Assembly (NCBI RefSeq): GCF_001921205.1
Contig: NZ_MSIE01000083.1
Location: forward strand, 1-41,510
Length of the DNA stretch: 41,510 nt
Source of the DNA: Actinophytocola xanthii
GTDB lineage: Bacteria > Actinomycetota > Actinomycetes > Mycobacteriales > Pseudonocardiaceae
Direction of reading: 5' to 3'
Made by a program: the position numbers and the translations under genes. The notes under the pieces are model-generated. The model saw nothing but the letters and a program-made list of their open reading frames with translations, did no database searches and had not been told where the DNA came from. Of the stretch, positions 3,594 through 24,137 are shown piece after piece (the first letter of the stretch is position 1; each line of letters begins with the position of its first letter).

Positions 3594-4520
3594 TCACTTC
3601 AGCACGCCCGCCGTCAGGCCCGCCTGGACCTGGCGTTGGAACAACACATAGACGACCAGCACCGGCAGCAGGGCGATCACCAGGCCGGCGAACAGCGCCG
3701 TCCAGTCCCCGCGGTAGCCCTGGCTGATCGCGAGCGCCGCCAGGCCCTGGGCGAGCACCTTCTTCTCCGGCTCGTTCATCAGCACCACCGGGAGTACGTA
3801 CTGGTTCCAGTGCCCCAGCACGTTGAACAACCCGATGCTGATCAGTCCCGGCTTCGCCATCGGCAGCATCACCCGGAAGAACAGTCCAAAGTGCGAACAT
3901 CCGTCCACGATGGCCGCTTCGGCGATCGAGGTGGGTTGGGTGCGGAAGAACGCTGTCAGGAAGAACACCGTGAACGGCAGCGAGAACGCCACGTACACCA
4001 GGGCCAGCGACACGTGGCTGTTGAGCCCCAGGAACTGGCCGACCCCGGGCAGCGCGGACAGGTTGCGCACCACGAAGAACAGCGGCACCAGAGCCAGGAA
4101 CACCGGGAAGATCATCCCGCCGACGAAGCCGTAGTAGACGATCCGGTTGCCCGGGAACTCGTAGCGTGCCAACACGTACGCCGCCATCGCGCCGAGCAGC
4201 ATGGTCAGCGGCACCGAGATCGCCACCACGACGACGCTGTTCACGAAGTACTGCCCGATGTTGGCCACGGTCCACGCGCGGGAGAAGTTCTCCACGTGCG
4301 GCTCACCGGGCAGGCCGAACGGCTCGGCCAGGAACTCGCTGTTCGACTTGAACGCCGACACGATCGCCCACAGCAGCGGCAGCGTCGTGATCAGCGCCCA
4401 GACCAGCAGGAACGTCCCGTTGAGCAGGTTCACCGCCCGCTCGCCGACGCCGACGCCAGGGGGCCGGTGCTCGGGCCCGGCGACCGGGGCTGGAGCCGGC
4501 GGGGACGACACGACGGTCAT
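3594..4520 (-). CDS. Carbohydrate ABC transporter permease, MalG/NgcG type
   Basis: This 308-residue inner-membrane permease of a CUT1-type sugar importer has about six helices, starting at NLLNGTFLLVWALITTLPLL. The EAA loop that docks the ATPase reads EAAIVDGCSHFGLFFRVMLP. The ATG at 4518-4520 overlaps the TGA of the upstream permease by 4 bp (ATGA), so translation is coupled. An N-terminal in-frame extension into the upstream gene is an antisense-frame artefact. It is the third gene of a binding-protein/permease/permease operon, and no ATPase gene is present. Actinomycete CUT1 importers often share a distant MsiK ATPase, so this absence is normal. Confidence 0.9.
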   Translation of the reverse strand: MTVVSSPPAPAPVAGPEHRPPGVGVGERAVNLLNGTFLLVWALITTLPLLWAIVSAFKSNSEFLAEPFGLPGEPHVENFSRAWTVANIGQYFVNSVVVVAISVPLTMLLGAMAAYVLARYEFPGNRIVYYGFVGGMIFPVFLALVPLFFVVRNLSALPGVGQFLGLNSHVSLALVYVAFSLPFTVFFLTAFFRTQPTSIAEAAIVDGCSHFGLFFRVMLPMAKPGLISIGLFNVLGHWNQYVLPVVLMNEPEKKVLAQGLAALAISQGYRGDWTALFAGLVIALLPVLVVYVLFQRQVQAGLTAGVLK

Positions 4521-5503
4521 GACAGCTCCACCCGCTCCCGCCGCGCGACCCGCATGAACACCGCCGCGACGACCAGCGTCAACAACAGCAGCACCACCCC
4601 GATGGCCGACGCGTAGCCGAACCGATAACTGTTGAACGCGCTCCGGTACAGCGCCAGGCCCAGGACGTCGCCGGAGCGCGATGGGCCACCGCCGATCCCG
4701 AGCATGATGTGCACCAGCGCGAAGGCGTCCATGGCCTGGATGGCCAGGTACACCCAGCCCACCTGGACCGTGTCCCACACCAGCGGCAGCGTGACCTGTC
4801 GGAACGTCATGAACCGACCCGCGCCGTCCAGCAGCGCGGCCTCGTAGATCTCCTTGGGGATGCTCTGCATCGCCGCGGAGAACAACACGACGTAGAACCC
4901 GACGAACGACCAGATCATCACCAGCAGGACGATCCAGAACGCGAAGTCCGGATCGCCCAGCCAGGGCTGGGCCCACCCGTCGAGTCCGACCGCGCGCAGC
5001 AGGCCGTTGAGGATCCCGCCGGCCTGGGTCGGGGCGAAGACGTACTTGAACAGCACCCCGATGATCGCCACCGAGAGCACCATCGGGAAGAAGTACACCA
5101 CCCGGTACACCGCCGAGCCGCGCACGCCCTCGACCCCGGATCTCCCGCGCCGGCCCACGTTCAGCATCGACGCCAGGAACAGTCCGAGCAGCACTGTCAC
5201 GGCGGGAACGACGACGACCAGGATCCCGTTGTTGCGCAGGGCGATCAGGAACTGCTCGTCATCCAGCAGGCGCGCGTAGTTGGCGAGCCCGACGAACGTC
5301 TGGCCGCCGGTCAGGCCGGTCCAGTCCGTCAGCGAGATGTAGATGGCCTGCAGGTAGGGCGACACCACGAACAGGCCGTAGATCCCGACCGGCACCAGCA
5401 GGAAGGACACCACGAAGGTGTACTTCCCGTGGTGCAGGGCGGGTCCGGCCTTCGATGTCGGCCGGCGTGGCACGGAGTTGCGAACGGACACGTCGGTCGA
5501 CAA
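4517..5503 (-). CDS. Carbohydrate ABC transporter permease, MalF/NgcF type
   Basis: The 328-residue permease has an N-terminal helix (FVVSFLLVPVGIYGLFVVSP, about 29-48), a periplasmic stretch and further helices. Its EAA motif reads IYEAALLDGAGRFMTFRQV. It pairs with the overlapping MalG-type permease to form the translocation channel. The start ATG at 5503 lies 18 bp after the binding-protein stop, so the three genes form one transcript. The substrate cannot be fixed from the permease alone. The binding protein and the neighbouring anmK suggest amino sugars. Confidence 0.9.
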   Translation of the reverse strand: MSTDVSVRNSVPRRPTSKAGPALHHGKYTFVVSFLLVPVGIYGLFVVSPYLQAIYISLTDWTGLTGGQTFVGLANYARLLDDEQFLIALRNNGILVVVVPAVTVLLGLFLASMLNVGRRGRSGVEGVRGSAVYRVVYFFPMVLSVAIIGVLFKYVFAPTQAGGILNGLLRAVGLDGWAQPWLGDPDFAFWIVLLVMIWSFVGFYVVLFSAAMQSIPKEIYEAALLDGAGRFMTFRQVTLPLVWDTVQVGWVYLAIQAMDAFALVHIMLGIGGGPSRSGDVLGLALYRSAFNSYRFGYASAIGVVLLLLTLVVAAVFMRVARRERVELS

Positions 5504-22052: not shown

Positions 22053-22772
22053 TCAGGCGGTGTAGTCGAAAGGCGCCGCGCTCACTCCGGTGACCGCCGC
22101 TCCCCGCAGGTGCGCCCGCCCCTTGCCGACCGTGCGGAGAGTGTGGCTGAGGAGGTCGGAGAACTCCGCGAGCTTGCTGTCGACGTACTCGTCGCACTCG
22201 GCGCGCTGACGGGCGGCCTCGTCGGCCGTCGCGTCGAGGATGCGGGCGGACTCGGCATGCGCCGCCTGGACGACCTCGGTCTGGGAGACCAACCGCTCCT
22301 GCTCGATGCGGCCCTCCTCGACCGAGCGCTCGAAGGACTCCCGACCGGCCTGGATCATCCGGTCGGCGTCCACCTGCGAGCGACCCACCAGCTCGTCGTA
22401 CTTGGCCTGCCCGGCGGCGACGGTCCTGGCCGCCTGGTCCTGCGCCTCGGCGACCAGCCGGTCGGCCCGCGCCTGCGCCTCGGCGATCATCCGCTCCGCC
22501 CTGGCCCTGGCGTCCTCGATCGCCTTGTCCGCCTCCATGGCGGCCTTGCTCACCGTCTGCTCGGCTTGGTGCTCGGCGTTGCCGATGATCTCGTCCTTGC
22601 GGTCGAGCACGTCCTGCGCGTCGTCGACCTCGGCCGGCAGCGCGTCGCGCACCTCGTCGAGCAGTTCGAGGACGTCACCGCGGGGCACCACACAGCTGGA
22701 GGTCATCGGCACCCCCCTGGCCTCCTCGACGATCGTGACGAGCTCGTCGAGCGCCTCGAACACCTTGTACAC
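22053..22772 (-). CDS. sepIVA: DivIVA-like septation protein SepIVA
   Basis: The 239-residue protein begins MYKVFEALDELVTIVEEARGVP. Most of the rest is an Ala/Glu/Arg-rich coiled coil (about 50-215). It has the same place next to DUF177, rpmF and rnc as Rv2927c of M. tuberculosis, which is SepIVA, a DivIVA-family protein needed for septation and cell elongation in mycobacteria. The conserved hydrophobic N-terminus supports that assignment. It probably binds membranes or partner proteins at the division site. The gene is separated from the upstream RNase gene by 90 bp. Confidence 0.85.
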   Translation of the reverse strand: MYKVFEALDELVTIVEEARGVPMTSSCVVPRGDVLELLDEVRDALPAEVDDAQDVLDRKDEIIGNAEHQAEQTVSKAAMEADKAIEDARARAERMIAEAQARADRLVAEAQDQAARTVAAGQAKYDELVGRSQVDADRMIQAGRESFERSVEEGRIEQERLVSQTEVVQAAHAESARILDATADEAARQRAECDEYVDSKLAEFSDLLSHTLRTVGKGRAHLRGAAVTGVSAAPFDYTA

Positions 22773-22862
22773 CGCCGGCCTCCTCCACCGCCCGCACCTG
22801 CCTGCGTCGGTCCAGTCTGCCGTCTGGCGCAGGGCGATCGGTGGAGGTGGCCCGCTGGCGTG

Positions 22863-23600
22863 TCAGCCGTCGGTGTCGACCTCCACGAACGTGGCGTACC
22901 TGTCCGGCGTGTAGTAGAACTCCCCGCCCTCGCCCGACACCAGCCGCCGGTCGCCCCGCCCAGAGACCCCGGGGGTGGGCACGGTGAAGAGGCGGTAGTA
23001 CCCGGACGCGCAGTCGGGCAGCAGACCCTCGCGGTTCTGGTAGGCCTGCCCGTCGCCGGGGTAGGGGTAGGGCCCGCCGGCGCGCACCAGCGCGACGGTC
23101 CGACCCACCTCGGACGGGAGGTCGGCCACCGGCACCTCGTCCAGACCGCTCGGGGCGCCGCACTCGTCTGGCGCCGCCTCGAGGTCGACCAGGACGAAGC
23201 TCGCGTAGTGGTCGTCGGTGAAGAAGTGCTCGCCGGCCGAACCGGTGACGATCCGGCGCGCCCCCCGGTGGGGCAGGCCGGGTGTCTCGACCGTGTACTC
23301 GTGGTAGTAGCCCTGCGCGCAGTCCGGCAGGAGGTCCTCGCGGTTGCCGAACACGGTGCCGTCCTGCGGATACGGGAACGGTCCGCCGGCGGCGATCAGC
23401 TCGGCGGTGTCGGTCGCCTCCGGCGGGAGGTCGCCGAGCGGCACGAGCTCGTAGCCGGAGGTGTCGCCGCACACCGGTTGTACGGCCGCGACCTCCGGCG
23501 CGGTGACGGTGGTGGCCGCCGCGGTGAGGCCGAAACCGGTGAGCGCGGTGACCAGAAGAGTGAGTAGCGTCGTGACGGACAGGGGCCGGACGTTGCTCAT
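22863..23600 (-). CDS. Secreted tandem guanyl-specific ribonuclease (RNase Sa type), second domain degenerate
   Basis: The 245-residue exported protein has a signal peptide (MSNVRPLSVTTLLTLLVTAL, cleavage near 29-40). Two copies of an RNase Sa/N1-type domain follow, at about 42-140 and 145-243. Domain 1 matches Streptomyces RNase Sa over its length (LPPEATDT...LIAAGGPFPY). It keeps the catalytic set: Glu101 in GYYHEYTV, Arg112, Arg116, His131 and Tyr132 in DDHYASF. In domain 2 Arg215, Arg219 and Tyr235 are kept. But Glu is Leu204 (GYYRLFTV) and His is Arg234 (TPDRYATF), so it should not cleave RNA. Each domain has its own Cys pair (44/94 and 147/197), placed differently from the RNase Sa disulfide. 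No barstar-like inhibitor gene is visible nearby. The family assignment is strong; the role of the second domain is unknown. Confidence 0.9.
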   Translation of the reverse strand: MSNVRPLSVTTLLTLLVTALTGFGLTAAATTVTAPEVAAVQPVCGDTSGYELVPLGDLPPEATDTAELIAAGGPFPYPQDGTVFGNREDLLPDCAQGYYHEYTVETPGLPHRGARRIVTGSAGEHFFTDDHYASFVLVDLEAAPDECGAPSGLDEVPVADLPSEVGRTVALVRAGGPYPYPGDGQAYQNREGLLPDCASGYYRLFTVPTPGVSGRGDRRLVSGEGGEFYYTPDRYATFVEVDTDG

Positions 23601-23666
23601 TCACCGACCGTAGACCCTGGAGGTGACGGCGCAGTAGCCGTCTTCAGGCGGGACACGGGAGTTCTC

Positions 23667-24137
23667 ATGGCAACGACCCCCCAGACGAGCACCCAGCCGC
23701 TCATCCGGCGGGCGACCGCCCGCGACGTCCCGGCGATCGTGGCGCTGCTCGCCGACGACGCGCTCGGCGCCCGCCGCGAGCGCGTCGGCGACGCGGCCTA
23801 CGCCAGGGCGTTCGCCGAGATCGACGCGGACCCGCGCCAGTACCTCGCGGTGACCGAGCTCGACGGCGAGGTCGTCGGCACGCTGCAGCTGACGTTCATC
23901 CCGGGTCTGTCCCGCCGCGGCGCCACCCGCGCGCTGATCGAGGCGGTCCGGGTGCGGGCCGACCAGCGCGGCGCGGGGATCGGTCGGCACCTGGCCGAGT
24001 GGGCCATCGAGGAGGCCCGTGCCCGGGGTGCGGCCGTCGTTCAGCTGACCACCGACGCGAGCCGGGTGGACGCCCACCGGTTCTACGCCCGGCTGGGCTT
24101 CGTGGCCAGCCACGTCGGCATGAAGCTCATCTTCTGA
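23667..24137 (+). CDS. GNAT family N-acetyltransferase
   Basis: The 156-residue cytoplasmic GNAT has motif A around RVRADQRGAGIGRHLAEWAI (acetyl-CoA pyrophosphate binding). It ends in VDAHRFYARLGFVASHVGM, the usual C-terminal strand. The ATG follows a GGGAG ribosome site. It is divergent from the RNase gene by 66 bp and convergent with coaD (6 bp apart). The acceptor substrate is unknown. Confidence 0.85.
   Translation: MATTPQTSTQPLIRRATARDVPAIVALLADDALGARRERVGDAAYARAFAEIDADPRQYLAVTELDGEVVGTLQLTFIPGLSRRGATRALIEAVRVRADQRGAGIGRHLAEWAIEEARARGAAVVQLTTDASRVDAHRFYARLGFVASHVGMKLIF

What the first reader, a model, noticed from the sequence alone, without database searches (positions are those of the whole stretch)
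22863..23600. Secreted double RNase Sa with a catalytically dead second domain
Two complete RNase Sa-type domains are fused behind one signal peptide. Domain 1 has the full catalytic set (Glu101, Arg112, Arg116, His131, Tyr132). Domain 2 has Leu204 for Glu and Arg234 for His but keeps its fold residues and both Arg. A dead copy held by selection might bind RNA, improve substrate grip, act as a decoy for inhibitors such as barstar, or target other cells. Known RNase Sa-type enzymes that I can name have one domain. The gene is next to housekeeping genes with no inhibitor nearby, so self-protection would rest on export.
Basis: partly seen in the sequence, partly recalled or inferred. Interest (0 to 1): 0.78.

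Follow-up and report, generated by a model that had tools for sequence, protein, structure and literature searches.

The report
Secreted RNase carrying conserved dead twin
This soil bacterium makes an apparently secreted RNA-cutting enzyme with a second copy of itself attached that has lost the key cutting residue; the same dead copy is found in relatives from three genera and, in one of them, also on an unrelated nuclease, so it may work as an add-on part that grips nucleic acid.

Summary
Window 22863-23600 (minus strand) encodes one 245-aa protein: an apparent signal peptide and two PF00545 (RNase Sa-type) domains. Domain 1 has the full catalytic set. Domain 2 has Leu204 for the catalytic Glu and Arg234 for the catalytic His.

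It is not a local accident. Two-domain genes were found in 80 of 390 family genomes searched (6 of 6 in this genus, Actinophytocola; 70 of 80 in unnamed genus g10; 4 of 7 in g27). In six g27 genomes the same dead domain sits at the C-terminus of an unrelated endonuclease I; relatives of that enzyme in 14 genomes outside g27 lack it.

Over these 86 dead domains the Glu is never kept (Leu 85, Phe 1); the His is kept in 42. In g10, g27 and the endonuclease tails the Arg65 loop is deleted (80 of 86). Residues matching the guanine loop (Tyr37, Asn39, Arg40, Glu41), Arg69 and Tyr86 are nearly invariant. The 32 dead domains put in a tree form one clade, and pairwise dN/dS shows constraint.

Best reading: a pseudo-RNase retained as an accessory, probably guanine/nucleic-acid-binding, module of secreted nucleases. 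A barstar decoy is unlikely.

The parts
22863..23600 (-). whole gene: apparently secreted tandem RNase Sa-type protein, 245 aa, one active-type and one dead domain
   Evidence: orthologues in 6 of 6 genomes of the genus
23487..23600 (-). apparent signal peptide and short pro-stretch (about aa 1-38; no signal-peptide predictor was run)
   Evidence: hydrophobic N-terminus read from the sequence; M1-S2-N3-V4 and L12, L13, L15, L16 invariant in six species
23178..23477 (-). domain 1 (aa 42-141), RNase Sa-type, full catalytic set
23298..23300 (-). codon of Glu101 (RNase Sa Glu54) in domain 1
   Evidence: Glu in 80 of 80 domain-1 sequences
23208..23210 (-). codon of His131 (RNase Sa His85) in domain 1
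   Evidence: His in 80 of 80 domain-1 sequences
22869..23168 (-). domain 2 (aa 145-244), dead RNase Sa-type domain
23028..23042 (-). domain 2 guanine-loop equivalent Y187-Q-N189-R190-E191 (RNase Sa 37-41)
   Evidence: Tyr37 86/86, Asn39 86/86, Arg40 85/86, Glu41 86/86 in dead domains; position 38 varies
22989..22991 (-). codon of Leu204 in place of the catalytic Glu
   Evidence: Leu in 85 and Phe in 1 of 86 dead domains
22899..22901 (-). codon of Arg234 in place of the catalytic His (variable among relatives)
   Evidence: His in 42, Arg in 37, others in 7 of 86

Best explanation
Domain 1 is an ordinary secreted guanyl-specific RNase. Domain 2 is an old duplicate of the domain that lost catalysis (Glu54 to Leu, fixed; Arg65 loop deleted in most lineages) but kept the loop that in RNase Sa holds the guanine base (recalled), Arg69 and the RNA-contacting Tyr86. 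It is kept as a non-catalytic accessory module that binds nucleic acid at guanines and holds substrate close to the catalytic domain, as carbohydrate-binding modules do for glycosidases. The same module was later joined to an unrelated endonuclease I in one genus. SHOWN here: the two domains, loss of Glu in all 86 copies examined, the retained residues, one clade among 32 sampled copies, pairwise dN/dS below 1, reuse on a second nuclease. INFERRED: export, that the domain folds, lacks activity, binds guanine or nucleic acid, and thereby helps cleavage.
For: Glu54 is absent from 86 of 86 dead domains, while Tyr37, Asn39, Glu41 and Arg69 are present in 86 of 86, Arg40 in 85 and Tyr86 in 84. Of 45 RNase Sa positions that are 97% or more invariant in domain 1, 18 stay invariant with the same residue in dead domains, among them Asn39, Arg40, Glu41, Arg69 and Tyr86. 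The 32 dead domains in the tree form one clade, support 100/96, and 93/94 with the trait columns removed. dN/dS median is 0.42 against 0.35 in domain 1 over 2649 of 2701 pairs. The same dead domain is fused to Endonuclease_1 (PF04231; over cut-off in the three of six tested) in 6 of 7 g27 genomes through linkers rich in Pro, Glu, Gly or Asp. Endonuclease I relatives in 14 genomes outside g27 and in one g27 genome (G257) end without it. Each of the 7 g27 genomes has the domain on at least one of the two nucleases. What the two catalytic partners share is that they cut nucleic acid. PMC2791442 (passages read) gives Glu54 and His85 as catalytic and Gln38 and Tyr86 as RNA-binding residues of RNase Sa.
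Against: No binding has been measured and no structure could be predicted. Asn39, Tyr51/52 and Phe89 may be kept for the fold rather than for binding, and position 38, an RNA contact in RNase Sa by PMC2791442, is not kept as Gln (Glu in 74 of 86). The dead domain is acidic in three of its four sets (median net charge -8.5 in the genus, -12.5 in g27, -14 on endonuclease I; +1 in g10), though less so than domain 1 of the same set (-14.5 in the genus, -17 in g27, -2 in g10). Ten of 80 g10 genomes have only the single domain in the same slot, so the module is dispensable. In the genus the domain evolves faster than domain 1 (mean dN 0.234 against 0.130). With the trait columns removed, the place of this window's dead domain is weakly supported (no starred set holds it).
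Confidence: 0.5

Rival explanations
1. The dead domain is a protein- or cell-surface-binding module that places the nuclease on a partner, a cell wall or a matrix; the old guanine loop is kept only because the fold needs it.
For: Fusion to two different nucleases fits any anchoring role. Tyr-x-Asn-Arg-Glu and Thr-Pro-Asp are nearly strictly kept, which could be a protein-binding face.
Against: The residues kept include those recalled or reported as base- and RNA-contacting in RNase Sa (Glu41 recalled; Tyr86 in PMC2791442), while Glu54 is gone. Both partners act on nucleic acid.
Confidence: 0.25
2. The dead domain is a structural stabiliser, folding aid or spacer with no ligand.
For: Moderate dN/dS, two kept cysteines (80 of 80 tandem proteins), and absence in 10 of 80 g10 genomes.
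Against: Does not explain Glu54-to-Leu in 85 of 86 together with Glu41 kept in 86 of 86, nor its place on an endonuclease I behind a Pro/Glu-rich linker.
Confidence: 0.13
3. Regulatory domain: it binds GMP or a guanine nucleotide made by the enzyme or by the cell and tunes activity.
For: Kept guanine-loop residues; RNase Sa-type enzymes leave guanine 3'-ends (recalled).
Against: The same domain on endonuclease I, for which I know no guanine end-product rule (recalled), behind a linker that reads as flexible.
Confidence: 0.06
4. Decoy for barstar-type inhibitors.
For: Barstar-family matches over cut-off in 13 of 13 genomes tested, this one included.
Against: In this genome the barstar gene follows a different, single-domain RNase. 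The Arg65 loop is deleted in 80 of 86 dead domains, and the domain also sits on an endonuclease I.
Confidence: 0.04
5. Domain 2 is not dead: a residual or altered nuclease that works without Glu54.
For: Toxins of the same fold class such as RelE and MqsR lack the Glu/His pair (PMC2791442, passages); 42 of 86 keep His85.
Against: In 80 of 86 Arg65 is deleted as well and in 44 of 86 His85 is replaced. None of 88 distinct single-domain relatives lacks Glu54 or His85.
Confidence: 0.02

Closest known systems
RNase Sa, Sa2, Sa3 (microbial guanyl-specific RNases, Pfam PF00545)
   Same: Both domains match the family; domain 1 has every catalytic residue, and the best solved relatives are RNase Sa-type structures (that 1py3 is RNase Sa2 is recalled).
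   Different: The solved full-length ones are single domains of 96-99 residues. Among the loci gathered up, the 85 two-domain ORFs all belong to g1, g10 or g27, the other 90 have one domain. The second domain here lacks the catalytic Glu.
Barnase-barstar type RNase with dedicated inhibitor
   Same: Same enzyme superfamily; this genome has such a pair elsewhere, a single-domain RNase followed by a barstar gene.
   Different: The tandem gene has no adjacent barstar and its second domain lacks the catalytic residues.
Endonuclease I (Pfam PF04231)
   Same: In six g27 genomes it carries the same dead RNase domain at its C-terminus.
   Different: Unrelated catalytic domain; its relatives in 14 genomes outside g27 lack the dead domain.
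Carbohydrate-binding modules and other pseudoenzyme-derived binding modules (recalled, not tested)
   Same: Non-catalytic module appended to unrelated catalytic domains, in the endonuclease I case behind a Pro/Glu-rich linker.
   Different: Derived from an RNase fold and acting, if the reading is right, on nucleic acid.
RelE/MqsR-type toxins of the microbial RNase fold
   Same: Same fold class without the Glu/His pair (PMC2791442, passages).
   Different: Those are cytoplasmic toxins (recalled); this domain is apparently exported and attached to an intact RNase domain.

Membership tests
Microbial RNase PF00545 (RNase Sa type), domain 1 | Significant match to the family model | tested here: met
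   82.5 bits in the fragment holding domain 1 alone, cut-off 24
Microbial RNase PF00545 (RNase Sa type), domain 1 | Catalytic Glu54, Arg65, Arg69, His85, and Tyr86 | tested here: met
   E101, R112, R116, H131, Y132; kept in 80 of 80 domain-1 sequences
Microbial RNase PF00545 (RNase Sa type), domain 2 | Significant match to the family model | tested here: met
   70.8 bits, cut-off 24
Microbial RNase PF00545 (RNase Sa type), domain 2 as an active enzyme | Catalytic Glu54 and His85 | tested here: not met
   L204 and R234 in the window; Glu in 0 of 86 and His in 42 of 86 dead domains
Microbial RNase PF00545, domain 2 | Guanine-site residues Tyr/Phe37, Asn39, Glu41, Tyr86 present (site assignment partly recalled) | tested here: met
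   86, 86, 86 and 84 of 86; that the site binds guanine is not shown
Microbial RNase PF00545, domain 2 | RNase Sa fold in three dimensions | not testable with these tools
Barnase-barstar pair | Inhibitor gene next to the RNase gene | tested here: not met
   the one barstar match in this genome lies on contig C125, 3' of a single-domain RNase
Polymorphic or contact-dependent toxin | Trafficking or toxin-delivery domains before the RNase domain | tested here: not met
   only PF00545 found in the protein at E up to 1
Accessory binding module (CBM-like) | Same non-catalytic domain joined to unrelated catalytic domains | tested here: met
   on RNase (80 genomes) and on endonuclease I (6 genomes); non-catalytic by residues, not by assay
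Accessory binding module (CBM-like) | Binds the substrate of its catalytic partner | not testable with these tools
   needs a binding assay

The most novel reading that the evidence does not exclude
A new class of nucleic-acid-binding module: a guanyl RNase that died once in the ancestry of Actinophytocola and a second large genus of the family, was stripped of its catalytic loop in most lineages, kept its guanine pocket, and is now a portable binding module that different secreted nucleases carry, the nuclease counterpart of a carbohydrate-binding module.
Probability: 0.4. Interest if true: 0.75.

Novelty: new variant of a known kind. Interest (0 to 1): 0.62.

Why it matters
Binding modules on secreted polysaccharide-degrading enzymes are well known (recalled). 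For secreted bacterial nucleases this would be a case of a module born from a dead copy of the enzyme itself, with the lost residue, the kept residues and the use on a second enzyme all visible in present genomes. It makes a simple question testable: does a dead RNase still grip guanine, and does that help the living one? It could also yield a small guanine-binding protein domain of practical use.

Tried and rejected
Local accident or sequencing error: rejected, since Glu is absent from all 86 dead domains from 83 genomes (80 tandem proteins and 6 endonuclease I fusions; 3 genomes have both). Neutral decay: rejected as the general reading, since 26 columns are 97% or more conserved in 80 second domains and only 3 of 2649 pairs have dN/dS over 1. 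Loss does happen: a short frame after the single-domain gene of one g10 genome weakly resembles the dead domain (L212, E 0.054). Independent duplication in this genus: disfavoured, not excluded. The 32 sampled dead domains form one clade even with trait columns removed (93/94), and forcing the genus's two domains together is not quite rejected (p-AU 0.053). Early single origin with many losses and transfer between genera were not separated. Barstar decoy: see rivals. Defence system: no PADLOC match for the tandem protein or one endonuclease I fusion. Viral contigs: 11 stretches fitted the patterns, none was confirmed as a relative of the loop-deleted domain. Plasmids: 17 records match, none covers 80% of the protein. 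Promoter and terminator scans found nothing, which says little in a high-GC actinomycete. Literature: searches (11 papers; 40 of 207 shown; 5; 2; 0; 13; 0), in one open-access library, showed no paper that by its title and the start of its abstract describes a natural tandem or dead RNase Sa domain. Only passages of PMC3814384 and PMC2791442 were read.

Limits of counts: in its large listing one search scored at most 7 candidates per genome. The order search (397 genomes) prints only its best rows, and its other-family hits were not checked for Glu. In one search the score parts the loop-deleted dead domains from all else, but not the loop-keeping ones: five of the six of this genus score 82-97, the sixth (G003) is not among the printed rows, and active single domains reach 88, so a loop-keeping dead domain in another genus could have been passed over. 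The phylum sample (396 genomes) gave 20 domains from 18 other genomes, all with Glu54 and His85. The tree used 102 rows chosen by hand, with few columns. Duplicates: searches counted some genes twice (same gene in two loci); one search counts each of the 80 tandem genes once. One of the three Pfam queries (meant for domain 2) was in a wrong frame, found nothing, and was repeated correctly.

Full report
WHAT IS THERE. The gene runs on the minus strand from ATG at 23600 to the stop at 22863-22865 and encodes 245 aa. Pfam finds PF00545 twice (149.1 bits together). Domain 2 alone scores 70.8 bits and its best solved relative, 1py3, matches with E 5.2e-25. Domain 1 aligns to RNase Sa with E as low as 1.2e-31. 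E101, R112, R116, H131 and Y132 stand where RNase Sa has Glu54, Arg65, Arg69, His85 and Tyr86. Domain 2 has L204 and R234 at the Glu54 and His85 positions, and keeps R215, R219 and Y235. That Glu54 and His85 catalyse, and that Gln38 and Tyr86 bind RNA, is stated in PMC2791442 (passages read). That Glu41 and the 37-41 loop hold guanine is recalled. The start of the protein reads as a signal peptide; no predictor was run.

SURROUNDINGS. On one side lie a divergent GNAT gene, coaD and rsmD; on the other a DivIVA-like gene, a YceD/DUF177 gene, rnc and mutM (the DivIVA-like label is a partial match below cut-off). Promoter and terminator scans of 22600-23800 were empty. The overlapping long ORFs on the other strand were not pursued; conservation supports the minus-strand frame. 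The slot is shared: in g10, 70 of 70 two-domain loci have coaD beside the gene, and of the 50 held with longer flanks (about 6 kb for most) 49 have the DivIVA-like gene, the YceD gene and rnc. In the genus the DivIVA-like and YceD genes are found in 6 of 6 and coaD in 5 of 6, most held with only 1.5 kb flanks. Single-domain genes sit in the same slot in the named genera Goodfellowiella, Herbihabitans, Actinokineospora, Saccharopolyspora, Kibdelosporangium and Streptoalloteichus. None of the 60 further named loci L055-L114 has coaD or the DivIVA-like gene beside it. The 4 g27 two-domain genes show none of these neighbours, for two of them with about 6 kb flanks.

DISTRIBUTION. Named loci place the window's genus as Actinophytocola: four Actinophytocola records carry tandem genes with 63-71% identity in the best segment. 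Of 390 genomes of the family, 316 match and 80 carry both domains: 6 of 6 in the genus, 70 of 80 in g10, 4 of 7 in g27. Ten g10 genomes have a single domain instead; all ten still have coaD and a DivIVA-like match beside it. With a model of the loop-deleted dead domain, hits of 134-158 bits in 386 family genomes occur only in g10 and g27. In the same printed list five of the six dead domains of the genus score 82-97 (the sixth, of G003, is not printed) and all else scores 88 or less, so this model does not part loop-keeping dead domains from active ones. In 396 genomes drawn from the phylum, 19 match; apart from this genome, 20 domains from 18 genomes were aligned and all have Glu54 and His85. 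All 88 distinct single-domain sequences have both residues.

THE DEAD DOMAIN. Of 86 dead domains (6 genus, 70 g10, 4 g27, 6 on endonuclease I), position 54 is Leu in 85 and Phe in 1. Position 85 is His in 42, Arg in 37, Tyr in 4 and Asp, Lys or Leu in 3. The Arg65 position is deleted with its loop in 80, as aligned; in the genus it is Arg in 4 of 6. Position 37 is Tyr in 86 (Phe in all 80 first domains), Asn39 86, Arg40 85, Glu41 86, Arg69 86, Tyr86 84; position 38 is Glu in 74. The Cys pair at 147 and 197 is kept in all 80 tandem proteins, which suggests a folded, exported domain.

HISTORY AND SELECTION. In a tree of 102 chosen rows all 32 dead domains form one clade (100/96), inside the group of same-slot single domains and first domains. 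Without the trait columns the clade remains (93/94, below the tool's star), no starred set then holds the window's dead domain, and forcing the two domains of this genus together costs 33 log-likelihood units, p-AU 0.053. Few columns are available, so single origin is favoured, not proven. Pairwise dN/dS in g10 and g27 (2649 of 2701 pairs inside the dS limits) has medians 0.347 for domain 1 and 0.422 for domain 2. In the genus mean dN is 0.130 and 0.234 over 15 pairs. Domain 2 is constrained, less tightly than domain 1. The endonuclease I tails were not part of this measure.

REUSE ON ANOTHER NUCLEASE. In six g27 genomes dead-domain hits are the C-terminal parts of open frames of 368-460 aa. 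Three of the six were scanned and match Endonuclease_1 PF04231 (145-146 bits) and PF00545 (27-35 bits, cut-off 24); the other three are alike along that part. The linkers are rich in Pro and Glu or in Gly, Pro, Asp and Glu. Endonuclease I relatives were found in 22 of 40 genomes searched. The dead tail occurs in 6, all g27. One g27 genome (G257) and 14 genomes outside g27, some of them in the genus and in g10, have the enzyme without it; in one more (G004) only pieces were found. Whether these are orthologues was not tested by a tree. In G253 and G258 the fusion and the tandem RNase lie about 37-38 kb apart on one contig. The fused dead domains group inside the dead clade with those of g27 and part of g10 (91/98).

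MECHANISM. The pattern is loss of chemistry with retention of the base-holding loop, Arg69 and Tyr86, and re-use by a second nuclease. The simplest reading is a substrate-holding module. Against certainty: no structure, no assay, some kept residues may serve the fold, and the domain is acidic in three of four sets, though in the tandem proteins less acidic than the first domain. I put 0.5 on this reading. The decoy reading is weak: barstar matches occur in 13 of 13 genomes tested, but in this genome the gene follows a single-domain RNase, 13 bases between the two hits (Pfam PF01337 99.7 bits), and the fused endonuclease gives a barstar decoy no plain purpose.

KNOWN OR NEW. Domain 1 is a plain member of the RNase Sa family. 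The two-domain protein and the dead domain are a new variant: seven searches of an open-access library (two found nothing, one showed 40 of 207) showed no description by title or start of abstract. Subscription papers were not searched, so prior mention cannot be excluded.

Noticed in passing
L290:3846-4250 and 4189-4539 (own genome, contig C125): A second, single-domain RNase with an N-terminal hydrophobic stretch is followed at once by a barstar gene (PF01337): a barnase-barstar type pair, separate from the tandem gene.
   Followed up: partly
L212:1403-1534 (minus strand), genome G157: A short open frame just after a single-domain RNase weakly resembles the end of the dead domain (E 0.054): a possible remnant of a lost second domain.
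   Followed up: partly
L044 (JOAA01000008.1): A record titled Rhodococcus rhodnii carries the same neighbourhood (coaD, RNase, DivIVA-like, rnc, mutM) as the family's loci, at 56-78% identity to the window, and may be mislabelled.
   Followed up: no
L116:4636-5918: In this g10 locus a sigma-70-type factor gene and a gene without Pfam match lie between the tandem RNase and the DivIVA-like gene; a number of other g10 loci show a similar extra distance.
   Followed up: partly
G120, contig C44, 94529-95221 and 182226-182918: Two matches of equal score to the tandem gene in opposite orientation on one contig, in an assembly with 7% contamination: duplication or assembly artefact.
   Followed up: no
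window:25347-27479 (+): A HelR/HelD-like gene (RNA polymerase recycling motor, below the curated cut-offs); a relative lies near the RNase slot in 50 of 50 g10 loci held with longer flanks.
   Followed up: no
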